Shown piece by piece: positions 12,890 to 55,635 of a stretch of 64,000 bases of DNA. Under the pieces are notes generated by a model. That model saw nothing but the letters and a program-made list of their open reading frames with translations. It was not told where the DNA came from and made no database searches. The stretch covers positions 1,448,501 to 1,512,500 of the forward strand of contig AP026970.1 in NCBI GenBank assembly GCA_027924025.1, written 5' to 3'. A program made the translations under genes and the position numbers. Position 1 is the first letter of the stretch, and every line of letters begins with the position of its first letter. Source of the stretch: Comamonadaceae bacterium OS-4 (lineage in GTDB: Bacteria; Pseudomonadota; Gammaproteobacteria; Burkholderiales; Burkholderiaceae_C).

Positions 12890-13996
12890 TTATTTTGGCA
12901 CGCCTGTCTGCGCCTGCAAGGCTTGGGCCACGGCCTGCCCGAGGTCAATCACCGCCATCGCGTAGTAGCTGCTCCAGTTGTAGCGGGTGATGGCGTAAAA
13001 GTTTTCGGTGCCGGCCACATAGGTGGGGGCGTCTGCGCCATTTTGCAGTTCGACCAGCGCCAGAGGGCCTGGGTGGCTAAGGGCTGCGGCCGGGAGGATG
13101 ACTCCTTTTTCCTGCATGGCGGCAGGGGTGAATGTGGGCAATATGTCGGGCGCCATGAGGGTGGGCATATCGAGGCGGGCCACCTCAAATTGCACGGGGT
13201 AATGGGTGGGCATTCCCGGCTTCCATTTGAACGCCTGGAAATAATTGGCCACCGAGCCTATGACGTCTGCCTGGCTGTGAAACAGGTCAACCCGGCTGTC
13301 ATTGTCAAAGTCGATACCGTATTTCACCCAACTCGAGGGCATGAACTGGGGCCAGCCCATGGCCCCTGCATAGCTGCCACGCAGGGCCGTGGGGTCGGTG
13401 CCGGTGCGTTGGGTGAGGCTGAGGTAGGCCTCCAGCTCACTCAAAAAATACGCTTGCCGGTCTGTTTTGCGGGGGTGTGCGTCTGGAAAGTCCAGGGCCA
13501 GGGTGGTCAGCGCATCGATCACGCGGTAGTTGCCCAGCTGCTGGCCATAAATAGTTTCTACCCCGATGATGCCCACGATGATGCTGGCGGGCACACCGGT
13601 TTGCGCTTCAGCGCGTGCCAGTGTCTCTTGGTTGGCGAGCCAGAACTTGACGCCTGCACGGATACGGATCGGCTCGACAAAGCGGCTGCGGTACAGCGCC
13701 CAGTTTTTCGGAGTGCCCACGGCCGGTGGGGTAATGGCCCGGACCACCGAGGGCAACATGCGCGCCTTGGACAGGGTGCTGCGGACCCACTCTGCATCCA
13801 GGTTGCGGCGCTGTGCAATGTCATCGGCCAGCCGCATGACGTCTGCGCGATCACCGTAGGCGGTGCCTTCGGGCAGTGCGGGCTTCACGGCATTGCGGGC
13901 AGGCTTGCTTTTTGTATGTTTTGGGTTGGAAGCGGCCATGGCGCTTGCGCATGCCGCTATCAAAACGAGAGTGAACAGAGACTTTTTGAGGAACAC
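12890..13996 (-). CDS. mltB: Lytic murein transglycosylase B-type
   Basis: About 368 residues of the MltB family, which cleaves peptidoglycan between MurNAc and GlcNAc with 1,6-anhydro product formation. The catalytic-domain signatures are present: IIGVIGVETIYGQQLGNYRV (catalytic Glu in VETIYG), GSYAGAMGWPQFMPSSW and FDNDSRVDLFHSQADVIGSV. I chose the GTG at 13996 because it gives a normal signal peptide (VFLKKSLFTLVLIAACASAMA). The frame extends upstream to a GTG at 14092, but that adds 32 residues unlike a signal. No lipobox is evident beyond the single Cys in the signal core. The signal core is encoded by a copy of the interspersed repeat. It is followed at once by the SPOR gene. Confidence 0.9.
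   Translation of the reverse strand: MFLKKSLFTLVLIAACASAMAASNPKHTKSKPARNAVKPALPEGTAYGDRADVMRLADDIAQRRNLDAEWVRSTLSKARMLPSVVRAITPPAVGTPKNWALYRSRFVEPIRIRAGVKFWLANQETLARAEAQTGVPASIIVGIIGVETIYGQQLGNYRVIDALTTLALDFPDAHPRKTDRQAYFLSELEAYLSLTQRTGTDPTALRGSYAGAMGWPQFMPSSWVKYGIDFDNDSRVDLFHSQADVIGSVANYFQAFKWKPGMPTHYPVQFEVARLDMPTLMAPDILPTFTPAAMQEKGVILPAAALSHPGPLALVELQNGADAPTYVAGTENFYAITRYNWSSYYAMAVIDLGQAVAQALQAQTGVPK
13931..13972 (-). repeat. Interspersed repeat copy encoding the MltB signal peptide
   Basis: On the minus strand it reads ACTCTCGTTTTGATAGCGGC then ATGCGCAAGCGCCATGG. This matches the copies in livM and livK over the ACTCTC-TTTTGATAGC-TGCGCA core. In frame it encodes TLVLIAACA, the hydrophobic core of the signal peptide. 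Confidence 0.65.
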
Positions 13997-14138
13997 GTGG
14001 GAACTTGGAGGTAAGAGGTTGGGGTCAGTGTAGCGAGTGGCAGGCAGGCCCTGCGTGGCACGGCGACAATCAAATGCTTTTGCGGGTCTCACCGAGGCCC
14101 TGCTACGGGTAAAACAGGGGTTTGGAGCTGCTTAACTG

Positions 14139-15482
14139 ATGCGTTCGTTTATTAAAGTTCAAATGGGGGTGGGCGCGGTGGCATTGGCCGCAACGGCTGC
14201 GTTGGCCGTGCCGTGGTATGCCGGCCTGACCCTGCGTGCCGAATTGCGCAGCTTGGCGGCTGCCCACGCGGAGGGCAATTTCCGGATTGCGCGGCTGGAG
14301 CACGAGGCCGGCTGGCTGCATTCGCGGGGTAGCCTAGATCTGGAGTGGCGCAGCGACTGTGCAACGGACCCCGACCAGCCCGCGGTGGTGCATGTGGAGT
14401 ACACCGCCCGGCACGTGCCGGACCGCGAGAGTCTGACGCGTATGGATTGGTCGGCAGTTGTCGTCTCGGATCTCGGCCCCTCGGGTGAAGGCTTGCGCGC
14501 GGGCCGGTTGAGTGGCACCGGCAGTGCGGGTTACGACGGCGTGTTGCGCTCGGATGTGCGCTTACCGGAGATGCAATTCAAAGGAAAAGGCCAAAGCCTG
14601 GTGGCCGCAGCCTCCAGTGGTACGCTGGTGGTGGGTGGTTCTGCGGTGAAGCTGGGGTGGAGCATGCCGCGCATGGTCTTGCGTGGCAGCGGCGAGGTCT
14701 TGCAGGCGGAGCAGCTGAACCTGCATTTTGATGTGCAGAACCATGCAAGCGGTATGGGAGCGCTTGCGCTGGATGTGGCGACCCTCAAAGGCGCGAGCTT
14801 CAACGCCCGGGGCTTGCACCTCAGCACCGAGACCCGGCAGCGCGCAGACCGCATGGACATGCGACTTACCCAATCGGTGAAAGAGCTGAAGGCAGCCGAC
14901 ATGGCGGTGGAAGACGTGGTGTTGCAAGCGGATGTAACGAACTTGCATGCGCCGAGTGTCAATTCGGCCGGCGAGGTGTTGTCTGCGACCTGCGGCTTGC
15001 GCAGCTTGACGCCCGGTCAACGTGAAAAGATGCGGGATGCTGTTCAAGCCTTGCTGGTGTCTGGCGTCAGTGTCGGTATCACCAAGCTCCAAGCGCGCAC
15101 CCGGGACGGCAGCCTGGACGCCGATGTAGCGCTCACGGTGGCGCCCGCCAAGGCCCGCGAACTGCAGCTTGCCGAGCAGTTGTCATCCCAAGGGAGTATT
15201 CAAATCCGGGGTGGGCTGATGCCACCGGATCAGAAAGAGTTTGCCGTGTCCTCGGGCTATGCGACGGCCCTGCCCGATGGCGTCAAAGCGGGCTTCGACT
15301 ACCGTGACGGCGTACTCAAATTCAACCAAATGACGGCGGACAGCGCGCTACTAAACTTGGGCCTGCAGCGCCTCGATATGTGGCTCAACGCATTTTTTTC
15401 GGGCCAGAACCTGGAGCTACCGCAAGAGGAAGAGCCTGCGGTAGCCCCCTCGGAGTTGCCGATGCCGGCCCCCGCTGTCTAG
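14139..15482 (+). CDS. YdgA-like DUF945 protein
   Basis: 447 residues with one N-terminal hydrophobic segment (VGAVALAATAALAVPWYAGL) that anchors or exports it, followed by a long, mostly beta-rich soluble part. The segment FRIARLEHEAGWLHSRGSLD is typical of the YdgA/DUF945 family, whose members have an inner-membrane anchor and a periplasmic domain of unknown function. The C-terminus (about residues 370-430) contains a LPDGVKAGFDYRDGVLKFNQ-like strand typical of the family end. It is convergent with the TgpA operon (4 bp between the ends). Confidence 0.82.
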   Translation: MRSFIKVQMGVGAVALAATAALAVPWYAGLTLRAELRSLAAAHAEGNFRIARLEHEAGWLHSRGSLDLEWRSDCATDPDQPAVVHVEYTARHVPDRESLTRMDWSAVVVSDLGPSGEGLRAGRLSGTGSAGYDGVLRSDVRLPEMQFKGKGQSLVAAASSGTLVVGGSAVKLGWSMPRMVLRGSGEVLQAEQLNLHFDVQNHASGMGALALDVATLKGASFNARGLHLSTETRQRADRMDMRLTQSVKELKAADMAVEDVVLQADVTNLHAPSVNSAGEVLSATCGLRSLTPGQREKMRDAVQALLVSGVSVGITKLQARTRDGSLDADVALTVAPAKARELQLAEQLSSQGSIQIRGGLMPPDQKEFAVSSGYATALPDGVKAGFDYRDGVLKFNQMTADSALLNLGLQRLDMWLNAFFSGQNLELPQEEEPAVAPSELPMPAPAV

Positions 15483-15485
15483 CCA

Positions 15486-17483
15486 TCAGGGCGAGAGCCA
15501 GCGCATGGTGCGCAATTGCAGGCGTGCAGTGCGCAGCGCGCCCGCTGCATCGGTTTTGCCATAGCGGAGCGCTTCGAGTTGCAGCAACCACTGCACGGCC
15601 AGCGGGTTCGCCCTTGGGTCAGCTTGCAGCAACAGGGCCAATGCGCGGGGTGTACACCCGGGCGCCACCGGCAAGCCAGTAGCCTTGATCTGCTGGCGTG
15701 CGGTCTCCAGCGCCTGCAACCACGGGTCTCGGCGCAGGCGATTCCACCAGTTCCAGCCGGCGCCGGTGAGACTGGCCGCCACGATCAGGCCGATCAACAC
15801 AGTGCTCAAGTCTTGCCAGTCTGGAGCGCTGAAGCCGAGGTTGCGCAGCAAATCCATTTGCTTGGCCTGGCTGTAGTTGAGCACCCACTGGTTCCAGCGG
15901 TTGTTGGTGGCTTCCCACAGGGCCCGGAGGTTGAGGGTGAAGCCCGGGCTCACCGCGTTCAGGGCTTGGGCCAGCACCCCGGGCTGGGGTGCCAGGCGCT
16001 GGAAGGTCCCGGTGCGGCCGGGCGATACGGCAGAGGTGGGGTCCACCCGCACCCAGCCGCGGCCGGCCATCCAGACCTCCGCCCATGCGTGGGCATCGCT
16101 TTGCCGCACGGTCCAGAAGCTGTCGACGTTGTTGACCTGCCCGCCTTGGTAGCCGGTGACGATGCGGGCCGGTACATCGAGTGCGCGCATCAGCAAAACA
16201 AAACTGGACGCAATGTGCTCGCAAAAGCCGGCCTTGCGGTCAAACCAGAACTCATCGGCCGTATGGGTGCCGTAGACCCCGGGCTCCAGCGTGTACTCAT
16301 AGCCTCCGGTGCGCAGTTTGTCCATCACCGTATCGACCAAGGTCTGGGCACCTGCGGTGGCCAGACCCGGCTGGCGGCGCAGGTCGGCCGCGAGCTGCAG
16401 GGTGCGGGGATTGAAGCCGGGCGGCAGATCCAGGTAGTCCTGCAGGCCCACCGCCAAGCGGTTGGGCCCATGGCGGTACTCGGGGTAGCTCGTGGCGCGG
16501 TAGCGCACCAGGTCGGCAATCGGCTGGTTGGCCTGCCATTGCAGATCGGGGCCCATGCTGGCGCTGTAGCCCCGTATTTCCGGCGCTTGGGGTGTGGCGT
16601 CCAGCACCATCAGCCAGGGCCGGTTGTTGGCGGCCAGCGTGACTTGGTAGCTGTAGGCGGGGCCCTGCACCGCCAAATCCGGCTGCAGTTGCATGCGCTG
16701 GGGGAATGCCGAGCGCAAGGGGCGCCATTCTTTGCCGTCAAAGCTGGAGAACACCGGACCGCGGAAATACATGTCGCGCTGGGGCGGTGTGGCGCCCTCA
16801 AAGCGGATGCGCATGGCAATGCTGTCGTCCAAGGCGAGGCTGGCAATCGTGCCCACCTGCATCTGCCCCGACAGGCCGCTGCGTCCGCTCATGGCATCGC
16901 CCGGCAAGCCCCACAGCGGGGCAATCCGCGGAAACAGCATGAAGAGCGCTGCCATGATGGGGGCGCCGGCGAGCGCCATCCAGGCGGCGGTGCGTGCTGC
17001 TTGCATCAAGGGCGGCCGCCCCACGGGCATGTGGCTGTTGACCAGCGCAGTGAGCAGGCCCAGGAGTGCCACGACCATGGCTGCAGCCGTCAACAGGCTT
17101 TGCGAAAAGAAGAAGTTGCTGAGCATGGTGAAAAAGCCCAGAAAGAAGATGACAAACGCATCTCTGCGCGCACGCATTTCCAGGGTTTTCAAGGCCAGCA
17201 ACACGACGATAAAGGTCACCCCGGCATCCCGCCCCAGCAGGGTGCGGTAGCTCATCCAGGTGCCGGCAGTCGCCAGCGCCAACAGCGCTAACAGCCACCA
17301 GCGCGAAGGCAGAGGGCGGCTCCCCCACGCCAGCACTCCGCGCCATAGCAGCACCGCGCCGGCCATCAGACTGCACCAAAGCGGCAGGCGATCGATTTGC
17401 GGCAGGATGACCCAGGCAATCACACCCAGCAAAAACAGGGTGTCGCGCGCGTCGCGGGGCAGGTGGTTCAAACGTTGCAGCAT
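15486..17483 (-). CDS. TgpA-type transmembrane transglutaminase (DUF3488)
   Basis: About 665 residues. Roughly six N-terminal membrane helices (DUF3488; LFLLGVIAWVILPQIDRLPL is the first) precede a periplasmic transglutaminase-like domain. That domain has its Cys in GFCEHIASSF (near residue 422), its His in DAHAWAEVW and its Asp in VRVDPT. A further helix and a DUF4129-like tail end the protein. The homologue in Pseudomonas aeruginosa (TgpA) is an essential periplasmic transglutaminase-like protein of uncertain substrate. The ATG at 17483 lies 7 bp after the DUF58 stop. A longer open frame to 17774 overlaps DUF58 in another frame and is not needed. Third gene of a moxR-DUF58-tgpA operon. Confidence 0.9.
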   Translation of the reverse strand: MLQRLNHLPRDARDTLFLLGVIAWVILPQIDRLPLWCSLMAGAVLLWRGVLAWGSRPLPSRWWLLALLALATAGTWMSYRTLLGRDAGVTFIVVLLALKTLEMRARRDAFVIFFLGFFTMLSNFFFSQSLLTAAAMVVALLGLLTALVNSHMPVGRPPLMQAARTAAWMALAGAPIMAALFMLFPRIAPLWGLPGDAMSGRSGLSGQMQVGTIASLALDDSIAMRIRFEGATPPQRDMYFRGPVFSSFDGKEWRPLRSAFPQRMQLQPDLAVQGPAYSYQVTLAANNRPWLMVLDATPQAPEIRGYSASMGPDLQWQANQPIADLVRYRATSYPEYRHGPNRLAVGLQDYLDLPPGFNPRTLQLAADLRRQPGLATAGAQTLVDTVMDKLRTGGYEYTLEPGVYGTHTADEFWFDRKAGFCEHIASSFVLLMRALDVPARIVTGYQGGQVNNVDSFWTVRQSDAHAWAEVWMAGRGWVRVDPTSAVSPGRTGTFQRLAPQPGVLAQALNAVSPGFTLNLRALWEATNNRWNQWVLNYSQAKQMDLLRNLGFSAPDWQDLSTVLIGLIVAASLTGAGWNWWNRLRRDPWLQALETARQQIKATGLPVAPGCTPRALALLLQADPRANPLAVQWLLQLEALRYGKTDAAGALRTARLQLRTMRWLSP

Positions 17484-17490
17484 GTCGGGC

Positions 17491-18480
17491 TCAGGCGAGT
17501 GCCAGCGCTTGTAGGCAGTTTTTCTGGTGGGCAGGGCCGCTATCAGGCTGCAGTTCGCGGCTGGCCAGGCGCAGGCCGTATCGCAAACCGCGGCTCTCTG
17601 CTTGCAGCACCCAGGCACACAGGCGGGACAGGGCTTGTTCGCGGGCCGCGCCGGCTGCGCGGCTGCGCAAGCTTTGCTCAACGCTGGCAAGGTCCAGCCA
17701 CAACTCGAGGCGCTGGGCCTGCTGGGCATCCCGGCTGACCAAGTCATCACTTTTGGCGGCTTTTTTCCACACAATCAATTTCAGCGGGTCGCCCCGGCGG
17801 TAGGCGCGCACCCCGTCAAATTCGCCGGTAGTGTGGCGCTGGGCGGTGGGTGCGCCTCCGGTGCGGGGCTCCCCGGGGGGCAGGGGGGGCGGATGGGGCT
17901 CCGGCGCCGGGTAAATCAGCACTTGGGCGGCCGGGCGCCATACTGTCCAGACTCGGAAAGTGCCCAGTGGAAAACGGGTTTCGGCGGTTAGGGTCGGGAT
18001 CGGTTGCAGACCCCGGGTGTTGGCGACAAAACTGATATGCACTTTGCTGCTGCCCTGGGGACCGACATCGGCCCAGCTCCAGTGCCCGCTGCCCAGGGTC
18101 GCCAGACCAATGCCATAGCGGGTGCGCTTGGAAGGGTTGTTAAGTTGAATGCCCAATGGCACGCTAGCCCTCGCAAAACATGCGTCTGGCGCTATCAAAT
18201 GCATAGTGAGTCCTGTCAGCGTCCCGTGGCACACATGGATGCCGATGATGGCCGCGCCCGTCAACATGAAGGTCAGCAAATAGCCCAGATTGAGCTGGTA
18301 GTTGATGCTGGCAATCAGCAACACCAGCAGCGTCAGCCCCAGCATCAGCCCCGGGCGGGTGGGCAGGATGTAGACGTTGCGTTGCGTCAGCACCGCGCTG
18401 TCCTGGCGCGGCATGCGCGACTCGAACCACGCCTGAAAGCGTCGCCGCACGCGCGTGACCGGGTTCCGGGTGGGGGTCAT
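17491..18480 (-). CDS. DUF58 protein (MoxR partner)
   Basis: 329 residues. Two N-terminal hydrophobic helices (RPGLMLGLTLLVLLIASINY and the following LLTFMLTGAAIIGIHV) are followed by a von Willebrand-A-like DUF58 region with the hallmark EFDGVRAYRRGDPLKLIVWK. DUF58 proteins are usually encoded with MoxR ATPases and transglutaminases and are thought to be assembly or maturation partners. Its start overlaps the moxR stop by one base (TGATG), showing translational coupling. A repeat copy at 18161-18204 encodes HLIAPDACFARASVPLG in the extracytoplasmic part. Confidence 0.88.
   Translation of the reverse strand: MTPTRNPVTRVRRRFQAWFESRMPRQDSAVLTQRNVYILPTRPGLMLGLTLLVLLIASINYQLNLGYLLTFMLTGAAIIGIHVCHGTLTGLTMHLIAPDACFARASVPLGIQLNNPSKRTRYGIGLATLGSGHWSWADVGPQGSSKVHISFVANTRGLQPIPTLTAETRFPLGTFRVWTVWRPAAQVLIYPAPEPHPPPLPPGEPRTGGAPTAQRHTTGEFDGVRAYRRGDPLKLIVWKKAAKSDDLVSRDAQQAQRLELWLDLASVEQSLRSRAAGAAREQALSRLCAWVLQAESRGLRYGLRLASRELQPDSGPAHQKNCLQALALA
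18161..18204 (-). repeat. Interspersed repeat copy inside the DUF58 gene
   Basis: On the minus strand it contains ATTTGATAGCGCCAGACGCA followed by TGTTTTGCGAGGGCTAGCGT. It has both halves of the family consensus (TTGATAGC...CGCA and GGGCTAG). It is read in the same frame (L-I-A) as the signal-peptide copies. Confidence 0.7.
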
Positions 18481-19400: not shown

Positions 19401-19441
19401 GGCAAGACGTTACCCGAAAACACCAAGAGACGAGAACGCAG

Positions 19442-20395: not shown

Positions 20396-20420
20396 CGTTT
20401 CTTTTGTATCCTCCACAGCC

Positions 20421-25542: not shown

Positions 25543-26508
25543 ATGTCCACACTGCCTGCGCCACTGGATAGGCTGCCATTTCCGGTGATTGGCTCGCCGC
25601 TGTTCATCATCAGCAACCCGAAGCTGGTGATTGCCCAGTGCATTGCGGGTGTGGTGGGTTCCATGCCGGCGCTCAATGCGCGTCCTGCTGAGTTGCTGGA
25701 AGACTGGCTGAAGGAAATCACCGAGGCGCTGGCGGCCCACAACGCGGCGCATCCTGACAAGCCCGCCGCGCCTTTTGCCATCAACCAGATCGTGCACAAG
25801 AGCAACGACCGCCTGGAGCACGACATGGCCCTTTGCGTGAAGTACAAGGTGCCGATCATCATTACCTCGCTGGGCGCGCGCGAAGACATCAATGCCGCCG
25901 CCCATTCGTATGGCGGTGTGGTGTTGCACGACATCATCAACAACAAGCACGCCCACAAAGCCATTGAAAAAGGCGCAGACGGTCTGATCGCCGTGGCCGC
26001 AGGTGCGGGTGGCCATGCAGGTGTGAAGAGCCCGTTTGCCCTGGTGCAGGAAATCCGCCAGTGGTTTGATGGCCCATTGGCCTTGTCCGGCTCCATTGCC
26101 ACTGGTGCATCGGTGCTGGCAGCGCAAGCCATGGGGGCAGACTTTGCCTATATCGGTTCGGCTTTTATTGCGACCGAAGAAGCCCGCGCCGCGCAGGAAT
26201 ACAAGCAGGCCATCGTGGACAACAACTCGGACGAGATTGTTTACAGCAACCTCTTCACCGGTGTGCACGGCAACTACCTGGCGCCCAGCATCCGCGCGGC
26301 CGGCCTGGATCCGGCTAACCTGCCGGAGAGCGACCCGAGCAAGATGAACTTTGGCGGCGCATCGGCCAAAGCCTGGAAAGACATCTGGGGCTGCGGACAG
26401 GGCATTGGTGCTGTCGACAAGATTCAGCCCGCGGGCGAGTTTGTGGCCCAGCTCAAGCGGGAATACGCCGCAGCCAAGGCCGAATTGCTGGCGCGCAGTT
26501 ACGCCTGA
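25543..26508 (+). CDS. Nitronate monooxygenase family (FMN-dependent)
   Basis: About 321 residues of the 2-nitropropane dioxygenase/nitronate monooxygenase TIM-barrel family. The phosphate-binding ADGLIAVAAGAGGHAG segment (FMN site) and LSGSIATGASVLAAQAMGAD are typical. The family oxidises alkyl nitronates; some relatives act on unsaturated acyl groups instead. The ATG at 25543 is preceded by AAGGAGCTCCCC. The frame extends further upstream into the dehydrogenase gene but is not needed. Tight coupling to the acyl-CoA dehydrogenase suggests either nitronate detoxification or a role in acyl oxidation. It overlaps the end of the convergent DUF1631 gene by 10 bp. Confidence 0.88.
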   Translation: MSTLPAPLDRLPFPVIGSPLFIISNPKLVIAQCIAGVVGSMPALNARPAELLEDWLKEITEALAAHNAAHPDKPAAPFAINQIVHKSNDRLEHDMALCVKYKVPIIITSLGAREDINAAAHSYGGVVLHDIINNKHAHKAIEKGADGLIAVAAGAGGHAGVKSPFALVQEIRQWFDGPLALSGSIATGASVLAAQAMGADFAYIGSAFIATEEARAAQEYKQAIVDNNSDEIVYSNLFTGVHGNYLAPSIRAAGLDPANLPESDPSKMNFGGASAKAWKDIWGCGQGIGAVDKIQPAGEFVAQLKREYAAAKAELLARSYA

Positions 26509-28880
26509 AGGCGCAGCTCCGGCGCGTTGTCGGCCATCAGACGGTTCAAGGCGCGCTCTACGATAGGCGCCTGATCGAGCATCTGTAGCTCGTGACGGCG
26601 CAGCATGGCGGCGACTTCCCGCTCGGACAGCACGAAGGCGTCAAAGCCTTCGCGGTTGGTGAACAAAAAGCGGGTGCGCATCGGGCTGACCCAGCTCAGG
26701 CGGCAGCGGAAGGGAGGTGTCTCCGGTGACACCTTTTCAAACCAGACACCGCGGGTCAGCAGTTGCGCACTGGCATCAAAGTCATCCATCTGTTCGGCAT
26801 CTTGCTCGGCCAGTTTGCCGGCTCTACGCTCGTCCAGTGCCTGCATCGCCTCATCGGCGGCATGTGCCTCGAGGGCCGCACCTTGGGTGTCGAGCGGGGG
26901 CGCAGCCTTCATCCGTATCGCGAGCATGTGGGTGGCAATCAGTCTGCGGGTGAAGTTCGCCCTGTCTTCGCCGTCCCAGCCAATGCTGTCGAGCTCGGTA
27001 TTGAGTGTGCGAACCAGCTCGGGCAGCACGCCGACCAATTCTTGGCGCTCTTCAGGCTTTGTCTTGGGCTGTGTGCTCCAGATGAGCTGGTCCATCGTGG
27101 CCAGTGTGCGGTTCCAATGGCCTGCATGGGTGTCTTCGGTCATCCAGACCAACGCAATCACCTGCCGCCATTGGGTGGTGAGGAAGGGTTTGAGAAACGG
27201 CGCAAGCGGCAGGTGCTCGGGCAAGGCGCTGATGCGCGCGTGCACCGCCTCATCGGCCTGTGCCAGCGCGGCCGCCAACTGCTCCTCGTCGTTTTCTCGT
27301 GAGGCAAATGGCTCGATGTGTTGATCAGCCTGCCGCTCTGACTCAAACAAAAATTCGGTGAAATCGGCCAGGAGCGCCGCAAACAGCGTGAGGTCGTCAT
27401 GGAACTCGTGCAACACCCGCTGGACGGTGGATTCGATCCGTTGGTACAGGGGGTCTTGTTCGCCTTTGTCTGGCGTCCATGCGACCGAGGCGGATGCCAG
27501 GGTGTCCACCAGTTTGCGGGCGGGATGCTCCGCACTCAAGAAGAAATCGCGGTCCACCATGGCTGCGCGCAAAACAGGGATTTGCAATCGCCCGATGACT
27601 ACCTTCAGCTCGGCCGGGATCGCGCCATCGGTGAACACATAGTCGAACACTTCGGCGAGTGCGTTGACCGTGCCGCGGTCCAGGTCTTGGGCCTGTTGGA
27701 ACGCCGGCTGATCCCCCAATCTGCGCAACACATTGTGCGGGGATCCGGTAGGTTCCATGTCGTCGTCAGACACCAGGAACTGGTAGCGGGAGCCGCGTCC
27801 AGTGCCGGCTTGCATCGCACTCAGGTACTGCAACAAGGCGGGGTCCGCGGGAATGGACAGGCTGTTGTGTGCTCCTGGAGTACCGCCGGAGTCAGCATCC
27901 GAGAGTTCAAAGCCACCGGCCTGCTCGACGGAGGTGCGTCCGACACCCAAGCGACGCAGGAAGTGACGGGCTTGTTGCACCCACTCCTGACGCGCAGGCC
28001 CCCACTGGGACCACACAGAGCGGTCCGCCGCGGGTGCTGACGGTGGTATGTCCCGTTGGGTGAAGCTGCTGCTTTCGGTGGTTGCGCCAAGTGGTGCGCC
28101 GGCGCTGCGCGGACCTAGGTCGGCTGCGCCGGTCAGCGGCGCAAACTGCGAGGATCCATTGGGGGATTTCCGGATGCGATGCACGGTGGTGGCATGCACC
28201 CCCGCCTGCGATAGCGTGGCAATCAGCTCTGTGTACAGCGGGCCCAAATCCACAAAGTGCGCAGGCTCCAGCGCATCCACCAGGTGCTCCGTGACCTGTG
28301 GGTCGAGTTCGCCTTTTTCCCAACCCAGCATGAAACCTTTGAGCAACACGAGCGGGCGGAAGGGGTTTTGCGACAACGACGCAGATTCTTCCCCCATCAA
28401 GGCGGCCAGTTGGGTCGACAAGGTGGTGAGCAAAGGCTCGAAATGCAGATTGAACCGCTGAGCTACCCGGTCCAGCAACAGGATGCGGTGCACCTCATCC
28501 AGGTCAATCAGGCTGAACGACATGCCTTCAAGGGTGTCTGCGGTGGGCTTTGGTGAGGCGGACAGCTGGGTGAGGGCGGGCCACACGGCAGCCACCTCTT
28601 CCTGCAATGCCAACTGGAGTTGGTGTCGGTAAGACTTCAAGAACCGCTCCGGCTGCCGGTCCATCAAGACCGAGGCGGCCCGCAAGTTCTGCCCTTGTAT
28701 CACCGGTAGCTTCCCATCCGCGAGGTCCAGCAGATGGCCGCGCAGGTGCTTCAGGTTGGCGGTATCGCGCTCTTCGAAAAAACCCAAGGTTCTTCCCACC
28801 ATGGCACGCACCAGGCGCTGAGCCCTGGCCCGTGATTCAGGCGTGCTGTTGCCGGCAGTTAATGACTGAAAAGCGCTCAT
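26499..28880 (-). CDS. DUF1631 protein
   Basis: About 793 residues, mainly alpha-helical, with no membrane segment or signal peptide. The beginning (RARAQRLVRAMVGRTLGFFE) and the C-terminal block (FRCRLSWVSPMRTRFLFTNR, then EGFDAFVLSEREVAAMLRRH) are characteristic of the DUF1631 family found in beta- and gammaproteobacteria. The C-terminal block resembles a PilZ-like barrel in character, but I cannot confirm that. Function is unknown. I preferred the ATG at 28880 (MSAFQSLTAGNSTPESRARA) over the upstream GTG at 28958; neither has a clear ribosome-binding site. Confidence 0.8.
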   Translation of the reverse strand: MSAFQSLTAGNSTPESRARAQRLVRAMVGRTLGFFEERDTANLKHLRGHLLDLADGKLPVIQGQNLRAASVLMDRQPERFLKSYRHQLQLALQEEVAAVWPALTQLSASPKPTADTLEGMSFSLIDLDEVHRILLLDRVAQRFNLHFEPLLTTLSTQLAALMGEESASLSQNPFRPLVLLKGFMLGWEKGELDPQVTEHLVDALEPAHFVDLGPLYTELIATLSQAGVHATTVHRIRKSPNGSSQFAPLTGAADLGPRSAGAPLGATTESSSFTQRDIPPSAPAADRSVWSQWGPARQEWVQQARHFLRRLGVGRTSVEQAGGFELSDADSGGTPGAHNSLSIPADPALLQYLSAMQAGTGRGSRYQFLVSDDDMEPTGSPHNVLRRLGDQPAFQQAQDLDRGTVNALAEVFDYVFTDGAIPAELKVVIGRLQIPVLRAAMVDRDFFLSAEHPARKLVDTLASASVAWTPDKGEQDPLYQRIESTVQRVLHEFHDDLTLFAALLADFTEFLFESERQADQHIEPFASRENDEEQLAAALAQADEAVHARISALPEHLPLAPFLKPFLTTQWRQVIALVWMTEDTHAGHWNRTLATMDQLIWSTQPKTKPEERQELVGVLPELVRTLNTELDSIGWDGEDRANFTRRLIATHMLAIRMKAAPPLDTQGAALEAHAADEAMQALDERRAGKLAEQDAEQMDDFDASAQLLTRGVWFEKVSPETPPFRCRLSWVSPMRTRFLFTNREGFDAFVLSEREVAAMLRRHELQMLDQAPIVERALNRLMADNAPELRLQA

Positions 28881-37048: not shown

Positions 37049-37105
37049 GATGCTATCAAAAAAATAGCGCCCCGCGCACATTGCATGTGGGCTGGGGCGC
37101 TAAAT
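37049..37105 (+). repeat. Interspersed repeat copy, also forming the rpoD terminator
   Basis: GATGCTATCAAAAAAATAGC then GCCCCGCGCACATTGCATGT and GGGCTGGGGCGCTAAAT. The layout GCTATCAAAAA-ATAGC-GCGCA-GGGCTGG is the repeat consensus. Compensating bases give it a 9-bp outer stem. Confidence 0.75.
37058..37102 (-). terminator. Rho-independent terminator of rpoD
   Basis: On the minus strand TAGCGCCCC pairs with GGGGCGCTA across an inner CACATGCAATGTG-like helix, followed by seven T. It starts 28 bp after the rpoD stop and coincides with an interspersed repeat copy. Confidence 0.88.
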
Positions 37106-37129
37106 GGCTTGTAGTGAAGCCGGCGGGCT

Positions 37130-41810: not shown

Positions 41811-41872
41811 AGGGCGATTGTAGGCAGCCTGCGCCGATCGCCGGATCAGTCCGGCTGTGCTAGCGCAAGGTA

Positions 41873-41928
41873 TTTGCTATCAAATAAGGAGCTGCTTGCG
41901 CAGGTTCTAAGAGGGCTGGAGGCCGATT
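41873..41928 (+). repeat. Interspersed repeat copy between ggt and dnaG
   Basis: TTTGCTATCAAATAAGGAGC then TGCTTGCGCAGG and AAGAGGGCTGGAGGCCGATT. This is the best-preserved intergenic copy and a good working consensus. Confidence 0.85.
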
Positions 41929-41946
41929 TGGTGCCTGAATAAAAAT

Positions 41947-44650: not shown

Positions 44651-45058
44651 ATGACAGACTCCAACACCCCCTTGCCCGCCCGTCCGGACCCGGACGCTTA
44701 CACCCAAGGCTTGGCTACCCGCCGTCAGGTGATGGGAGATGCATTTGTGGACGCGGCGCTGGCCAAAACCACGCCGTTTACCGCACCGATGCAGGCACAC
44801 ATCAGCCGTGCGGCGTGGGGCGATGTGTGGCAGCGCCCGGGCCTTGATTTGAAAACCCGCAGTTTGATCACGGTGGCCATGCTCACCGCCTTTGGCAAGC
44901 AAAACGAACTCAAAGGCCATGTGCGGGGCGCCCTGAACAATGGCGCGACTGCCGAAGAAATCCAGGAGGTGCTGTTGCACGCCGCGGTGTACTGCGGGGT
45001 GCCCACCGCGGTAGAGGCGTTTCGCAGTGCCGATGAGGTGGTCAGCAGCCGCGATTGA
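44651..45058 (+). CDS. pcaC: 4-carboxymuconolactone decarboxylase-like (PcaC)
   Basis: 135 residues, the usual length of single-domain PcaC. It has TRRQVMGDAFVDAALAKTTP, LDLKTRSLITVAMLTAFGKQ and NELKGHVRGALNNGATAEEI, and the VLLHAAVYCGVPTAVEAFR end typical of the family. PcaC converts 4-carboxymuconolactone to 3-oxoadipate enol-lactone in protocatechuate degradation. CMD paralogues with other roles are common, so the exact reaction is likely but not proven. No other pca gene adjoins it; the PcaB-like lyase is 3 kb away on the other strand. Confidence 0.75.
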   Translation: MTDSNTPLPARPDPDAYTQGLATRRQVMGDAFVDAALAKTTPFTAPMQAHISRAAWGDVWQRPGLDLKTRSLITVAMLTAFGKQNELKGHVRGALNNGATAEEIQEVLLHAAVYCGVPTAVEAFRSADEVVSSRD

Positions 45059-45062
45059 ATGT

Positions 45063-45120
45063 CAAAAGAGCATCCAGCCCCTATTTTGATTGGGCTAGCT
45101 GCTCCTTATTTAATAGCAAT
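45063..45120 (-). repeat. Interspersed repeat copy downstream of pcaC
   Basis: Read on the minus strand: TTGCTATTAAATAAGGAGCT then AGCTAGCCC and ATAGGGGCTGGATGCTCTTT. It matches the 41873 copy in order and spacing. It lies between two convergent genes. Confidence 0.8.
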
Positions 45121-47994: not shown

Positions 47995-48135
47995 TCCGAG
48001 AACCTTGTGCGCTTAGTGAAAGACTGTGAGCCACAACTGTAAGAAGGCAGTGGCCTCAGTAGAACACACTCATTCACACAGATCGAGCTTTCATGCGCCG
48101 CGAGTGCTTGGGGGTCTTTTGTTGCTAAGTGGGTC

Positions 48136-49064: not shown

Positions 49065-49097
49065 GGCAATTGTTTGGTTGAGGTCGGGTCGGGTGGG

Positions 49098-50000: not shown

Positions 50001-50005
50001 GGTGT

Positions 50006-50890: not shown

Positions 50891-50923
50891 GGGTTCTCCG
50901 GGTCGTCAAATGGTGAAGTAAAG

Positions 50924-51676: not shown

Positions 51677-51679
51677 GCG

Positions 51680-52441
51680 TCAGCTCCCCAGGTAAGCGTC
51701 AAGGACTTGCTTGTTATTGCGGATTTCATCCGGCGTGCCGATGGCCAGCACCTGGCCTTCGACCATCACCATGATGCGGTGGCACAGGTCCATCACAAAG
51801 TCCATGTTGTGTTCAATCACTACAAAGGAGCTCTTTTTGCCGAACTTGGGGTTGCGGTTCAGTTCCTTCAGCAGGGTGCTGATGCCGCCCACCAGACTGG
51901 GGTTCACCCCTGCACACGGTTCATCGAGCAGCACCAGGTCGGGCTCGCTCATGAAGGCCATAGCAATGTCCACCAGCTTCTGCTGGCCGTAGGACAGTTC
52001 GCCGGCCTTTTTGTCGGCCACATGGCGGATGCGGAACTGGTCGATCAGCGCATCGGCTTTGGCCCCCAAACCGGAGTCGGACGGAGCGAACATGCGACTC
52101 AGCATCGAGCCTTGGTGCTCCTGGGCCGCGACGATCAGGTTGTCGCGCACGGTCATCTTGCCGAAGACCTGCAGGGTCTGGAAGGTGCGGCCCACACCGC
52201 GACGGCTCAGCTCCAGCGGACCGGCTTGGGTGACGTCCTGGCCGTTGAGTTCGATCTTGCCTGCATCGGGGGTGATCTGGCCCAGCATGCTGTTGAACAG
52301 GGTGGTCTTGCCTGAACCGTTAGGACCGATGACACCGAAGATCTCGCCGGGCATGACCTCGAAGGACACACCGCCAACGGCCTGAATGGCGCCGTAGGCC
52401 TTTTTGATGTTGGTAACTTTAAGCACGGGTTGGCTCATCAT
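51680..52441 (-). CDS. livG: ABC transporter ATP-binding protein LivG-type
   Basis: 253 residues. Walker A is GVIGPNGSGKTTLFNSMLGQ, the LivG-type signature region is ELSYGQQKLVDIAMAFMSEP, and Walker B is LVLLDEPCAGVNPSLVGGIS. The longer stretch before the signature (GRTFQTLQVFGKMTVRDNLI) is typical of LivG. Its start overlaps the end of livM (4 bp), indicating translational coupling within the operon. Confidence 0.94.
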   Translation of the reverse strand: MMSQPVLKVTNIKKAYGAIQAVGGVSFEVMPGEIFGVIGPNGSGKTTLFNSMLGQITPDAGKIELNGQDVTQAGPLELSRRGVGRTFQTLQVFGKMTVRDNLIVAAQEHQGSMLSRMFAPSDSGLGAKADALIDQFRIRHVADKKAGELSYGQQKLVDIAMAFMSEPDLVLLDEPCAGVNPSLVGGISTLLKELNRNPKFGKKSSFVVIEHNMDFVMDLCHRIMVMVEGQVLAIGTPDEIRNNKQVLDAYLGS

Positions 52442-53421
52442 CGGGCTCCCTGTTGTTGGGCGGCAGCGGCACGGGCGGCGCTGGCTTCACGGGCCTGGCG
52501 TTTGGCCTTGATGCGGTCAGGAATGCTCAGCAGGCCATCCGGCAACCAGATCATCAGCAACACCACCGCAGAGCCAAACACAAAGAGGTACCAGGCCTGC
52601 GCAAAGCGCAGCCATTCGGGCAGGATGACGCCTACGGCAGAACCCAGCAGCGGGCCCAGGAAGTAGCCGGGACCACCGACCACCACCATCAGGTACATCA
52701 TGATGGAGGCGCCCACGGTGAAAGGCGCCGGTTCAATGAACTGCACCAGGGACGCAAACAAAGCGCCTGCCACACCGGCGTAAACGGCGCCTATGGCAAA
52801 GCTCAGCAGCGTGTAGCTGCGGGTGTTGATACCCAGGCTTTCGGCGCGTATGGGGTTGTCCCGCAACGCGGTAAATGCCTTGCCCCAGGGGCTGCGCAGC
52901 AGGCCCCATTGCAGGGCACCCAGAACGACGGCGGTGCCCAGCACAAAGTAGTAGTACGCGAGGTTGCCCTCCAGGGAATAGCCGAATAGTGAAGGGCGCG
53001 CAATATTGTTGATGCCAAAGGTGCCGCCGGTCAGCCACTCCTCATTGCGCATCACCAGCCAGACGGCCGTGTTGAAGCCCAGCGTGGCAAAGGCGAGGTA
53101 AATCGTCTGCACCCGCAATGCCGGAAAGCCCAGTGCGATGCCCACAAAAAAGCAAATCAGCGCGGCAGCAGGCAAGCCCAGCCAGAAGCTGAAGCCCGCT
53201 TTCATCAGAATGGCGACGGTGTAGGCGCCTATGCCGAAGAAAGCCGCATGCCCCAGTGACTTCTGGCCCGCGTAACCGACTGTGAGGTTCAGGCCCATGG
53301 TGGCGATGACAAACACCAGCCAGTAAGAGAGCAGGTACACGCCGTAATTTTTTAGAAAAGGCGGCGCAGCGAGCAGCAGGATTGCGCAAGCAGCTATCAA
53401 AATGAGAGTAATTTTTTTCAT
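52438..53421 (-). CDS. livM: ABC transporter permease LivM-type
   Basis: 327 residues with about nine membrane helices. It has the LivM-type signature VGYAGQKSLGHAAFFGIGAY and later GGTFGINNIARPSL and RDNPIRAESLGINTRSYTLL. The Arg/Ala/Gln-rich C-terminus is cytoplasmic. The first helix is encoded by an interspersed repeat copy (MKKITLILIAACAILLLAAP). It forms the membrane pore with LivH. Confidence 0.94.
   Translation of the reverse strand: MKKITLILIAACAILLLAAPPFLKNYGVYLLSYWLVFVIATMGLNLTVGYAGQKSLGHAAFFGIGAYTVAILMKAGFSFWLGLPAAALICFFVGIALGFPALRVQTIYLAFATLGFNTAVWLVMRNEEWLTGGTFGINNIARPSLFGYSLEGNLAYYYFVLGTAVVLGALQWGLLRSPWGKAFTALRDNPIRAESLGINTRSYTLLSFAIGAVYAGVAGALFASLVQFIEPAPFTVGASIMMYLMVVVGGPGYFLGPLLGSAVGVILPEWLRFAQAWYLFVFGSAVVLLMIWLPDGLLSIPDRIKAKRQAREASAARAAAAQQQGAR
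53366..53408 (-). repeat. Interspersed repeat copy encoding the first LivM helix
   Basis: On the minus strand ACTCTCATTTTGATAGCTGC then TTGCGCAATCCTGCTGCTCG. It encodes TLILIAACAILLL in frame and shares ACTCTC-TTTTGATAGCTGC-TGCGCA with the livK and mltB copies. Confidence 0.75.
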
Positions 53422-53440
53422 GAGGGTGTTCCGGTGGTAC

Positions 53441-54316
53441 TCAGACTTTGCGTTCCACTTTTTTGCCCAGCAGCCCTTGCGGCTTGAACAGAATCACGAC
53501 CATGAAGATCACCAACGCCACCGCGTCTTTGTAGGCGGGGGAGATGTAGGCGGCGGCCAGGTTCTCGCACACGCCGACGATGAGCCCGCCCAACAGCGCG
53601 CCCCGTGAGTTGTTGAAGCCGCCGATGATGGCTGCGAAAAAAGCCTTGTTGCCCAGGGACTCACCCATGTCGAATTTGGCGAGGTAGGTGGGCGTGACTA
53701 AGAGCGCGGCCGCGACAGCCAGCACGGCATTGATGGCAAAGGCGTAAAAAATCATGCGGGGCACGTTGATGCCCAGCACCGACGCGCTTTCGGTGTTTTG
53801 CGCCACCGCCTGCATGGCCCGGCCGGTGACCGTCTTGGTCATGAAGGCTTGCACCACAAAGACGAGGATCAGCGCTACCGCAAAGGTGCCCACATCCGCC
53901 AAGGTAATGGTCACACCGGCGATGTTGAAGAGCTTGTCTGCAAACAGGCTGGGGAAGGGGTGGGCTTCGGCGCTGTAGCCGGCGCGCAGCCCGTTGCGCA
54001 TGGCAATGGACAGGCCGATGGTGGCCACGACGATGGGCATCATGCCGAACTTGAACAGGGGGTCGACCAAGCCGCGTTTGAACACCCAGCCCAGCAGGAA
54101 CACGGCCAACACGACCGTCATGGCGAAGCTCACCGCCAGGGGTGCGCCAATGCTCATGAAGCCCAGCATCATGAAAGCGGGCAGCATCACGAACTCGCCC
54201 TGGGCGAAGTTGATGGTGCCGCTGGCCTGCCACAACAGCGTAAAGCCGAGGGCTGCCAGTGAGTAGATGGCGCCGGTGGCCATTCCACTGAAGAAGAGTT
54301 GGAGAAAGTCGGTCAT
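53441..54316 (-). CDS. livH: ABC transporter permease LivH-type
   Basis: 291 residues with about eight membrane helices. It begins MTDFLQLFFSGMATGAIYSL with FTLLWQASGTINFAQGEFVM, the LivH signature. The loop region RAMQAVAQNTESASVLGINV is the EAA-like coupling stretch, and NNSRGALLGGLIVGVCENLA is also typical. It is 119 bp downstream of livK with a hairpin between, and 19 bp upstream of livM. Confidence 0.94.
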   Translation of the reverse strand: MTDFLQLFFSGMATGAIYSLAALGFTLLWQASGTINFAQGEFVMLPAFMMLGFMSIGAPLAVSFAMTVVLAVFLLGWVFKRGLVDPLFKFGMMPIVVATIGLSIAMRNGLRAGYSAEAHPFPSLFADKLFNIAGVTITLADVGTFAVALILVFVVQAFMTKTVTGRAMQAVAQNTESASVLGINVPRMIFYAFAINAVLAVAAALLVTPTYLAKFDMGESLGNKAFFAAIIGGFNNSRGALLGGLIVGVCENLAAAYISPAYKDAVALVIFMVVILFKPQGLLGKKVERKV

Positions 54317-54363
54317 TCGGAGTCCTTGGGGCGCGGTGCCAGCCGGGGAACTGGTGGTTCGCC

Positions 54364-54427
54364 AGCCCCCTGAAGAGAAAGCCCGCCTGGTCCGCTCGGG
54401 TGTCTGTGCCAGAGCGAGCAGGGGGCT
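54364..54427 (-). other. Stem-loop between livK and livH
   Basis: AGCCCCCTG and CAGGGGGCT form a perfect 9-bp stem enclosing about 46 nt. It lies right after the livK stop on the minus strand. No T-run follows. Such structures commonly stabilise the binding-protein transcript and reduce expression of the downstream permease genes. Confidence 0.5.
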
Positions 54428-54435
54428 TCAGGCCA

Positions 54436-55635
54436 TTACTTCTTGGCCGGTGCAGCGGGCTTGGCAGCGGCTGCGGGTTTGTTGACAACGATGGGGTTCA
54501 GCGGGGGCAGGGTCGCCACTACCACTTGCTGGCCGTTTTTCACCTCCACCAAAAAGCTTTCGCGGTCCAGATCGCCGTTCTGGTCAAAGGCCACGTTCAT
54601 CAGGATGCCGGGTTCTTTGTCGGTGGTCACCACCAGGCTGTGCAGCGCATTGGCAACTGCCTTGCGGTCCAGCTTGCCGACCTTCTCGATAGCGGCCTTC
54701 AGGGTGTAAATGCCGGAGTAGCCCTTCATGCCGTTGTGGTCGGAGATGTATTTGTACTCACGCTCAAACTTGGCGCGGAAGGCACGCACCGCGGGGATGG
54801 GGGCATCCACCGTCAGGCCCACGTGAGCGACGGCGCCGTTGGCGGCTTCGCCGGCCAGTTCAATGACCTTCTGGCCGGTGAGGGTGGTCTCGCCGACGAT
54901 GGGCTTGTTCCAGCCTTGCTTGCGCAGTTCGCGCAGGGCGCGGGCGGACTCTTCTTCGTTGGTGTAGACAAACACGCCGTCGGCATTGCTTTGCTTGGCT
55001 TTGAGCACGGCGGCAGAGAAGTCCACTTGGCCGGCATCGGTCGAGATTTCAGCAGCGATCTTGGTTGCAGAGGTGGCTAGCGCCTTTTTGATCATGTCCA
55101 GGCCGCCTTTGCCGAAATCGTTGTTCACGTAAATGATGGCGATGTTCTTGAGCTTGGCCTGCTCGCTCATGTAGCGGGCCACTTTGGGCATGGCGGTCGC
55201 TTGGGTGAAGCTGGTGCGGAAGATATAGGGGTTGCCCTGCATGGTGATGCTGGCTGCCTCACCGCCGGTGAAGTTGGGGATCTCGGCTTTGCGGCTCTCG
55301 GCCATCGACACCATGATGGAGCCCGAGAACACCGGGCCGAAGATGGCAAACACCTCGTCGTCTACCGCTTTTTGGGTCAGACCCTTGGCCACGCCGGGGT
55401 TGGACTGGGTGTCGGAGGTGATGGTCTGGATCTTTTTGCCCAGCACACCGCCTGCGGCGTTGATTTCCTTGACTGCCAATTCCACCCCGTTTTTGAAGTT
55501 GGTGCCGGCCGAGGCGCCACCGCCGGAGAGCTCCACAATATTGGCGATCTTGATGACTTCCTGGCTAAAAGCGCTGCTAGCGCCCATTAGCATTGCGCAG
55601 GCAGCTATCAATTTGAGAGTGTTCCGTTTTTGCAT
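54436..55635 (-). CDS. livK: Periplasmic substrate-binding protein, LivK type
   Basis: 399 residues. A normal signal peptide (MQKRNTLKLIAACAMLMGAS, cleaved near SSAFS-Q) precedes a Peripla_BP_6-type domain, with VIKIANIVELSGGGASAGTN, ELAVKEINAAGGVLGKKIQT and a long middle region ending near ELAGEAANGAVAHVGLTVDA. The tail is Ala/Lys/Pro-rich. It has an AGGAG ribosome-binding site. It is the first gene of the liv operon and diverges from the IclR gene. Downstream genes suggest an aromatic or quinate-type ligand instead of an amino acid. Confidence 0.92.
   Translation of the reverse strand: MQKRNTLKLIAACAMLMGASSAFSQEVIKIANIVELSGGGASAGTNFKNGVELAVKEINAAGGVLGKKIQTITSDTQSNPGVAKGLTQKAVDDEVFAIFGPVFSGSIMVSMAESRKAEIPNFTGGEAASITMQGNPYIFRTSFTQATAMPKVARYMSEQAKLKNIAIIYVNNDFGKGGLDMIKKALATSATKIAAEISTDAGQVDFSAAVLKAKQSNADGVFVYTNEEESARALRELRKQGWNKPIVGETTLTGQKVIELAGEAANGAVAHVGLTVDAPIPAVRAFRAKFEREYKYISDHNGMKGYSGIYTLKAAIEKVGKLDRKAVANALHSLVVTTDKEPGILMNVAFDQNGDLDRESFLVEVKNGQQVVVATLPPLNPIVVNKPAAAAKPAAPAKK
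55566..55615 (-). repeat. Interspersed repeat copy encoding the LivK signal peptide
   Basis: On the minus strand ACTCTCAAATTGATAGCTGC then CTGCGCAATGCTAATGGGCG and CTAGCAGCGCTTTT. It carries both ends of the family consensus (GATAGCTGC...GCGCA and GGGCGCTAG). It encodes TLKLIAACAMLMGASS in frame. Confidence 0.8.

What the first reader, a model, noticed from the sequence alone, without database searches (positions are those of the whole stretch)
13931..55615. Interspersed repeat encodes the same peptide in three unrelated signal/membrane segments
MltB, LivM and LivK are unrelated, yet their N-terminal hydrophobic segments read TLVLIAACA, TLILIAACA and TLKLIAACA. The DNA behind them (13931-13972, 53366-53408, 55566-55615) matches over ACTCTC-nnnTTGATAGC-GC-TGCGCA and continues into a family seen between genes elsewhere in the window. 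A mobile or templated repeat therefore seems to supply or overwrite signal-peptide cores in a fixed frame. Only the matches are seen here; the mechanism is inference.
Basis: partly seen in the sequence, partly recalled or inferred. Interest (0 to 1): 0.85.

Follow-up and report, generated by a model that had tools for sequence, protein, structure and literature searches.

The report
Genome-wide DNA motif rewriting proteins in place
A roughly 60-letter DNA signal occurs hundreds of times in this bacterium and in many relatives, and at the genes examined closely it was written in place rather than inserted, so that unrelated proteins ended up sharing a short stretch of amino acids.

Summary
In detail: MltB-, LivM- and LivK-type genes read TLVLIAACA, TLILIAACA and TLKLIAACA through near-identical DNA. 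The stretch is one frame of a ~58-67 bp motif. An unselected 864-kb sample of this genome holds 94 copies against 0 in the reversed control, so about 400-450 per genome (extrapolated). About half touch coding DNA, in both orientations. At coding sites examined it is not an insertion: orthologues in motif-poor genomes mostly align without gaps, with ordinary codons (protein 17491-18480, ManC antisense, LivM, LivK). Between species, high-information positions diverge 6.1%, low-information ones 24.6%, flanks 14.4%. Motif number differs sharply between congeners (16 rich, 4 low, 17 zero of 37), with more intermediate values across the family (82 of 250 genomes and 53 of 141 genera have at least one match). 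I read it as a long recognition signal kept by an unknown trans-acting factor; biased DNA exchange, uptake-signal-like, is my leading guess and is not shown.

The parts
55564..55620 (-). motif copy in frame in the signal peptide of the LivK-type gene (TLKLIAACA)
   Evidence: 35.4 bits with a model that does not contain it; copies at the same place, same flank spacing, in G006 and G033
53364..53413 (-). motif copy in frame in the first hydrophobic segment of the LivM-type gene (TLILIAACA)
   Evidence: 30.9 bits; among 38 relatives a score of 25 or more only in four close relatives of the window and in L144 and L148
13911..13975 (-). motif copy in frame in the signal peptide of the MltB-type gene (TLVLIAACA)
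   Evidence: 27.5 bits; best in-frame score within 25 codons is 10 or more in 12 of 13 motif-rich congeners and in 1 of 16 with three or fewer matches
18145..18209 (-). motif copy in frame inside a conserved protein (MHLIAPDACFARAS)
   Evidence: 20.4 bits; ungapped in 30 of 30 orthologues compared, score 10 or more in 14 of 15 motif-rich and 0 of 14 motif-poor genomes
41872..41934 (+). intergenic motif copy, best in the window
   Evidence: 40.0 bits; copies at the same place in G006 and G033
37050..37112 (+). intergenic motif copy
   Evidence: 27.2 bits
35719..35765 (+). intergenic motif copy
   Evidence: 19.1 bits
48118..48184 (-). weak motif copy at a gene end
   Evidence: 16.5 bits; G006 has 34.6 bits at the corresponding place
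45055..45119 (-). very weak motif-like stretch
   Evidence: 8.8 bits, E 0.086
6706..6734 (+). partial motif inside the ComEC-type gene
   Evidence: 11.9 bits; corresponding region of G006 scores 23.0 bits
5586..5614 (-). partial motif inside the ComEC-type gene
   Evidence: 10.9 bits; corresponding region of G006 scores 16.5 bits
54436..55635 (-). LivK-type periplasmic binding protein gene
   Evidence: Peripla_BP_6, E 9e-65
52438..53421 (-). LivM-type permease gene
   Evidence: BPD_transp_2, E 3.1e-38
12890..13996 (-). MltB-type lytic transglycosylase gene, likely GTG start at 13996 (start is inference)
   Evidence: SLT_2, E 2.5e-86
17491..18480 (-). conserved gene of no Pfam family at E 1e-5 that carries an in-frame copy at codons 91-112

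Best explanation
The three peptides are readings of one long DNA recognition motif (about 58-67 bp, roughly TTTGCTAYn-W5-rATAGCTGCTTGCGCAnnTTCnACGgGsGCTAGaGgCcnATTTgrC) that exists in an estimated 400-450 copies in this genome. Shown: at the coding sites tested it comes and goes by substitution, with no length change at protein 17491-18480, the close ManC group and LivM, and in most LivK; its informative positions are conserved between species while its uninformative ones are not; related genomes differ sharply in how many copies they hold, and the tested sites mostly follow the genome's number. Inferred: a trans-acting factor in motif-rich genomes recognises the motif and keeps it. The LIAACA frame is usually free of stops and is hydrophobic and alanine-rich, so signal peptides and membrane starts tolerate it; there the motif draws unrelated proteins to the same peptide. 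Which process recognises it is open. My leading guess is biased DNA exchange of the uptake-signal kind (molecular drive), because sites persist even where they alter protein sequence. My odds: about 0.93 for in-place origin at the tested coding sites, 0.75 for a trans-acting recogniser, 0.35 for DNA exchange as the process.
For: 94 copies at E<=0.01 in 864 kb, 0 in the reversed control at E<=1. Protein 17491-18480: 30 of 30 orthologues ungapped, score 10 or more in 14 of 15 motif-rich and 0 of 14 motif-poor genomes, four other families among the latter. ManC-type gene, antisense over EPLGRNTAPALTIAA: of the 15 rows with at least 58% identity, all ungapped, 8 of 9 motif-rich score 18-49, four motif-poor congeners -44 to 6, two outgroups -28 and -12. 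LivK in 40 genomes: Spearman 0.76 between site score and genome match number. LivM in 38: 0.53, with intermediate scores, 25 of 25 alignments that span the site ungapped. Sulfite/nitrite reductase-type gene, antisense: 14 of 14 rich (23 to 69), 0 of 15 poor (all below -24). Divergence 50/826 at high-, 115/751 at mid-, 124/504 at low-information positions and 868/6021 in flanks. Both orientations inside genes (19 sense, 17 antisense) point to recognition of DNA rather than RNA. Second replicon depleted: 1 of 150 best hits against 11.3 expected.
Against: The score spectrum is bimodal (13 sites above control at PSSM 0-20, 108 above 20), which a purely gradual drive would not favour. ComEC and ComP-like families occur in motif-rich and motif-poor congeners alike; ComEC was not found in 4 and ComP_DUS in 5 of the 16 motif-rich ones, most of them drafts. 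Motif-richness changes only about 3-4 times on the tree, so the many-genome correlations are not independent. No recogniser was found. Occupancy is imperfect: Variovorax PCZ-1 (124 matches) LivK -48; Polaromonas A23 and jejuensis LivM about -45; ManC of G012 -27; protein 17491-18480 of G008 -8; three motif-rich genomes carry only the more divergent ManC form without the motif; one motif-zero genome keeps a motif-like MltB site (G007, 28.6). Three motif-poor LivK signal peptides differ in length, and the reductase linker has small indels in 9 of 30 rows. Across the family many genomes have intermediate numbers.
Confidence: 0.6

Rival explanations
1. The motif is the binding site of a chromosome-organising or nucleoid protein (or another intracellular complex), kept by ordinary selection at each site rather than by exchange bias.
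For: Information over about 60 bp (55 bits summed, inflated by end columns), with A/T tracts that tend to switch together and mainly adjacent-position dependence; counts per 20 kb slightly more even than Poisson (index 0.79 over 39 stretches); a bimodal score spectrum fits cooperative binding; sharp differences between genomes fit loss of one protein.
Against: Sites sit antisense over a conserved ManC segment and alter residues in other proteins, which weak per-site selection should avoid; no polarity along the chromosome (68 plus, 81 minus of 149 hits).
Confidence: 0.3
2. Copies overwrite each other by templated gene conversion, so that partly similar sites are converted to the motif.
For: Bimodal scores; some orthologous copies differ in blocks of uninformative positions while the motif stays (G000 site 146135).
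Against: No pair of 94 copies exceeds 83% identity; 17 pairs have identical runs of 20 or more against 13.25 (up to 25) in a short-range Markov null, though the spread of pairwise identity is somewhat wider than in that null (sd 0.081 against at most 0.073); no strong long-range linkage between variants; intermediate scores at LivM.
Confidence: 0.1
3. It is a mobile element (MITE, REP or an in-frame palindromic element) that inserted into genes and spacers and is now decaying.
For: Many copies of one consensus in spacers, mostly beyond gene ends (15 of 39 in convergent, 2 of 39 in divergent spacers); two motif-bearing spacers of about 100 bp are absent here but present in G006 and G033.
Against: Ungapped coding orthologues; slow evolution at informative positions; the Y1 transposase family is found in motif-rich and motif-poor congeners, one weak hit here; no base-pair covariation among the strongest column pairs.
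Confidence: 0.05
4. The shared peptide is ordinary signal-peptide convergence and the DNA match follows from it.
For: KLIAACA-like cores are common in LivK of motif-poor relatives.
Against: The DNA match uses a rare codon (ATA, 0.19% of codons), extends over about 60 bp, and is found in spacers and antisense; codon choice in LivK tracks the genome's motif number.
Confidence: 0.02

Closest known systems
DNA uptake sequences of Neisseriaceae (DUS) and Pasteurellaceae (USS)
   Same: Genome-wide over-representation, present in coding and intergenic DNA, more in non-coding DNA than expected, no orientation bias, proposed to accumulate by point mutation, found in some members of a family and not in others (passages of PMC3630211 and PMC1939737).
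   Different: DUS are 10-12 bp with thousands of copies (the short USS core is recalled); this is about 58-67 bp with an estimated 400-450 copies and a bimodal score spectrum; no uptake preference is known.
Rickettsia palindromic elements (RPE)
   Same: A repeat read in frame inside unrelated proteins (passages of the review PMC10969869).
   Different: RPEs are about 150 bp and described as insertions; here the tested coding sites show no insertion.
Betaproteobacterial repeat element BRE
   Same: Dispersed repeat in Comamonadaceae and Bordetella, some copies within coding sequences (passages of PMC3110155).
   Different: About 90 bp and 69% GC in Bordetella, most copies (29) in Polaromonas JS666, where this motif has 2 matches; the eight best window copies are 45-52% GC. 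The BRE sequence itself was not compared.
HIP1 of cyanobacteria
   Same: Iterated genome-wide motif, frequent in many genomes and low in some (start of the PMC4390886 abstract in a listing).
   Different: 8-bp palindrome linked to methyltransferases (same listing).
MITE, REP and BIME repeats
   Same: Interspersed short repeats in spacers (recalled).
   Different: No family-wide hairpin, no insertion at the coding copies tested, no link to Y1 transposase genes.

Membership tests
DNA uptake sequence (DUS/USS) | strong genome-wide over-representation of one sequence | tested here: met
   94 copies against 0 in control in 864 kb
DNA uptake sequence (DUS/USS) | evolves in place in coding DNA, no insertion | tested here: met
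   ungapped orthologues: protein 17491-18480 30 of 30, ManC 15 of 15 in the close group, LivM 25 of 25 that span the site, LivK 36 of 39
DNA uptake sequence (DUS/USS) | short signal of about 10-12 bp | tested here: not met
   information spread over about 60 bp
DNA uptake sequence (DUS/USS) | graded excess of mismatched forms | tested here: inconclusive
   mismatched cores are in excess, but against a control of different composition; full-motif scores are bimodal
DNA uptake sequence (DUS/USS) | competence genes or a ComP-type receptor go with the motif | tested here: inconclusive
   PF03772 and PF16732 found in motif-rich and motif-poor congeners, and missing from some of each
DNA uptake sequence (DUS/USS) | raises DNA uptake or transformation | not testable with these tools
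   needs an experiment
MITE or RPE-type mobile repeat | coding copies are insertions that change length relative to empty orthologues | tested here: not met
   three motif-poor LivK and the reductase linker do differ in length
MITE or RPE-type mobile repeat | spacer copies show clean empty sites | tested here: inconclusive
   two spacers lack the motif here, but G025 also has the first one, which suggests deletion here
MITE or RPE-type mobile repeat | copies share recent descent (long identical runs) | tested here: not met
REP/RAYT | conserved palindromic hairpin and a Y1 transposase partner | tested here: not met
   a typed consensus folds no better than shuffles (z -0.06); strongest covariation is between neighbours; PF01797 does not follow motif number
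Known structured RNA family (Rfam) | match to a covariance model | tested here: not met
   0 matches in the window at gathering cut-offs; in six other loci one sub-threshold U7 hit outside the motif
BRE | same sequence and same taxonomic abundance | tested here: inconclusive
   abundance differs (JS666 29 BRE against 2 matches here); BRE sequence not in the passages seen

The most novel reading that the evidence does not exclude
A new class of genome-wide signal: a composite motif of about 60 bp, some five times longer than known uptake sequences, that spreads in place by a drive acting through DNA exchange, in a third large bacterial lineage (Comamonadaceae-type genera), is gained and lost with one unknown recogniser, and reshapes proteins as it does so, producing the same peptide in unrelated proteins and overlaying a conserved enzyme segment on the opposite strand.
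Probability: 0.35. Interest if true: 0.95.

Novelty: new variant of a known kind. Interest (0 to 1): 0.85.

Why it matters
In-place motifs that reshape proteins are known to me mainly from uptake sequences in two bacterial families. It also warns that identical short peptides in unrelated proteins can reflect DNA-level pressure rather than protein function, and that rare codons in a signal peptide may be part of a DNA motif.

Tried and rejected
Insertion or mobile element: rejected for the tested coding copies. Hairpin or RNA element: a typed consensus folds no better than shuffles, the strongest mutual information among 97 unselected copies is between neighbouring columns, Rfam gave nothing relevant. 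Some single spacer copies look like perfect hairpins, but that is not a family property. Polarity along the chromosome: none seen (68 plus, 81 minus of 149 chromosomal hits; the 150th is on C2). REP/RAYT link: Y1_Tnp in motif-rich and motif-poor genomes. Competence link: ComEC and ComP_DUS in both; ComEC not found in motif-rich G011, G019, G025, G029, nor ComP_DUS in motif-rich G011, G012, G029, G030, G032, all draft genomes. Templated copying: not seen.

Limits. Gene calls are from a home-made caller that trims starts, so 'upstream' copies (18 of 94) may be in genes. The signal-peptide enrichment uses a crude hydrophobicity rule and four cases classed by eye; four other N-terminal copies (L053, two in L057, L070) I classed as not signal peptides. 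Match numbers per genome are capped (83, 20, 127, 150). Orthologue comparisons used the 30 loci that the tool returned, of 51 matches (MltB), 43 (protein 17491-18480), 52 (ManC) and 56 (reductase). Fifteen of 30 ManC rows have under 58% identity and I set them aside as a more divergent form (3 motif-rich, 1 low, 11 motif-poor, five of these from other families); with all 30 rows the motif-rich mean is 11.7 (n 12) and the motif-poor mean -30.4 (n 17). LivK and LivM correlations used 40 and 38 of the 80 loci, which I chose. The MltB score is the best in-frame one within 25 codons. P-values across genomes ignore shared descent. In one search the window's labels 99 and 999 are placeholders, not measurements. 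The 36 pair alignments reuse loci between three species pairs. The score bin 0-10 is swollen in both columns, probably by stretches read as N. In one search I used 52 coding copies outside the window; the right number is 50. Paper searches for novelty; the library lacks most subscription journals.
Full report
1. The observation. They encode TLVLIAACA, TLILIAACA and TLKLIAACA in unrelated Pfam families (SLT_2, BPD_transp_2, Peripla_BP_6). ATAGCNGCNTGCGC occurs 40 times in the whole genome (4.07 Mb, two contigs) against once for the reversed pattern. Aligning the 40 sites shows conservation from about -16 to +50 around the core, far beyond the 18 bases.

2. The family. I built a sequence-only model from 27 of the 40 copies, leaving out the three window copies, other copies that looked like coding sequence, and two that looked like chance. 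It returned 150 matches in the genome, all that the tool scored of 2438 candidates, the weakest at E 5.9e-7. For unselected copies I took 40 evenly spread 20-kb stretches plus the window (864 kb). A profile from the same 27 copies found 94 matches at E<=0.01 and none in the reversed sequence at E<=1 (5 at E<=10). This extrapolates to about 400-450 copies per genome (inference). One of the 150 best hits is on the second contig, where 11.3 would be expected.

3. Where copies lie. With a home-made gene caller (761 genes, 83.6% coding), 40 of the 94 are intergenic, 36 inside called genes and 18 in the 5' extension of a called gene. Intergenic DNA is about 16% of the sample, so it is enriched. Of 39 intergenic copies with two neighbours, 15 lie between convergent and 2 between divergent genes. 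Inside genes orientation is balanced (19 sense, 17 antisense). Of 30 interior copies, 13 are in the LIAACA sense frame and 13 in one antisense frame. Over 57 nt these two frames are stop-free in 75 and 78 of 94 copies; the next most open frames (49 and 38 of 94) hold 0 and 1 interior copies, so stops explain part of the 'fixed frame' and amino-acid content presumably the rest. Outside the window 4 of 50 coding copies encode a signal-peptide-like start by eye (L041, L042, L072, and L048 in antisense), against 0.8 expected by a crude rule. The L042 gene is of DsbD type.

4. Not insertion at the coding sites tested. (a) The protein at 17491-18480 has the motif at codons 91-112. All 30 orthologues compared are ungapped over residues 85-122, four of them from other families. 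The motif score is 10 or more in 14 of 15 motif-rich genomes and in 0 of 14 with three or fewer matches; residues differ too (LIAPDAHFAGAS against, for example, LTPPEPGFAGSA). (b) In a ManC-type enzyme (PF00483, PF01050) the motif lies on the opposite strand of EPLGRNTAPALTIAAHAAIKNG. Among the 15 rows with at least 58% identity, all ungapped, 8 of 9 motif-rich genomes score 18-49 and the ninth -27; four motif-poor congeners score -44 to 6, two outgroups -28 and -12. Fifteen more divergent rows lack the motif whatever the genome. That this is the catalytic segment is recalled, not tested. (c) LivK: in 40 genomes the site score follows the genome's match number (Spearman 0.76); Polaromonas JS666 and CF318 (2 and 3 matches) keep LIAACALA with other codons. 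Of 39 alignments that span the signal peptide 36 are ungapped; the 3 others are motif-poor. (d) LivM: 25 of 25 alignments that span the site are ungapped, 13 start inside it. A score of 25 or more is found only in four close relatives of the window and in L144 and L148; lower positive scores occur elsewhere (TLISIAVAA in L108 and L115, 16 and 19), and several motif-rich genomes have none. (e) MltB: best in-frame score 10 or more in 12 of 13 motif-rich and 1 of 16 motif-poor genomes; motif-poor near relatives have cores such as AAVLLATCALQAG. (f) A sulfite/nitrite reductase-type gene (NIR_SIR), antisense in what looks like a linker: 14 of 14 rich, 0 of 15 poor, with small indels in 9 of 30 rows. 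Points (e) and (f) alone would not exclude insertion.

5. Maintained, not decaying. Of the seven window copies called, five have a called copy at the same place in both G006 and G033, one is confirmed there in G033 only, and one (35719) in neither; flank spacing is identical in both for three. Over 36 orthologous pair alignments (10 of 24, 12 of 24 and 14 of 35 copies per species pair could be aligned), divergence is 6.1% at 23 high-information positions, 15.3% at mid, 24.6% at 14 low-information positions and 14.4% in flanks. A dead repeat should not show this.

6. Genome by genome. Of 37 genomes of the genus 16 have 63-83 matches (83 is the cap), 4 have 2-15 and 17 have none; 24 genomes of other families have none. 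On a tree of 33 congeners motif-richness needs 3-4 changes, and no one of 200 bootstrap trees makes the motif-rich ones a single group, which favours losses in the lineage of G005, G013, G017, G031 and G036 and in G007; strongly supported branches alone do not force this. Motif-rich named ones include Rhodoferax sp. TH121, R. ferrireducens OTU1, Polaromonas sp. A23, P. jejuensis and Variovorax sp. PCZ-1; with none: Variovorax paradoxus ISL-79, Hydrogenophaga sp. A37, Rhodoferax lacus, Comamonas sp. BIGb0124 (names). The 14 LivK loci of genomes with three or fewer matches (154 kb) gave 0 hits. So presence is sharply uneven but not strictly all or nothing.

7. How it may work. Sites that mostly follow the genome's number point to one trans-acting recogniser (inference). 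Copies in both orientations in genes point to recognition of DNA (inference). No strong long-range covariation, no sign of recent copying and no Y1 transposase link argue against a transposon or templated copying. I favour a drive through DNA exchange because sites persist where they touch protein sequence, as described for uptake sequences (passages). Against it: ComEC and ComP-like families do not separate motif-rich from motif-poor genomes, the motif is some five times longer, and the score spectrum is bimodal where a graded excess of mismatched forms is reported for uptake sequences. A nucleoid-type binding site is nearly as likely.

8. Known or new. I found no description of it: searches for Comamonadaceae with interspersed repeat, DNA uptake sequence with Comamonadaceae, the core string and related terms gave nothing on it. 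The nearest, BRE (PMC3110155, passages), is 69% GC in Bordetella and most abundant in JS666, where this motif is almost absent. I file it as a new variant of a known kind (in-place genome-wide DNA signals), not as a member of the uptake-sequence family: length was tested and not met, and uptake could not be tested.

Noticed in passing
window 25538/25539 and about 26503-26509: G006 and G033 have spacers of about 100 bp with a motif copy at these two gene junctions; this genome has none there, while more distant G025 has the first one, so this genome probably lost it by deletion.
   Followed up: partly
window 5456-7966: The ComEC-type competence gene itself carries two degenerate motif copies that score higher in the corresponding region of G006.
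   Followed up: partly
L038 about 5180, L044 about 4374, L048 about 7891: Some single spacer copies look like perfect or near-perfect hairpins, L044 followed by a T run, as if the motif had been combined with a terminator (by eye).
   Followed up: no
second contig C2 (305 kb) of the genome: The motif is nearly absent from the second contig (1 of 150 best hits), which may be a recent acquisition.
   Followed up: partly
window 17491-18480: Conserved protein with orthologues in many families of the order but no Pfam family at E 1e-5; I recall DUF58-like proteins but did not confirm it.
   Followed up: no
alignment A2, columns 12-15 and 57-60: A/T tracts tend to switch as blocks (AAA or TTT), which suggests that DNA shape matters.
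   Followed up: partly
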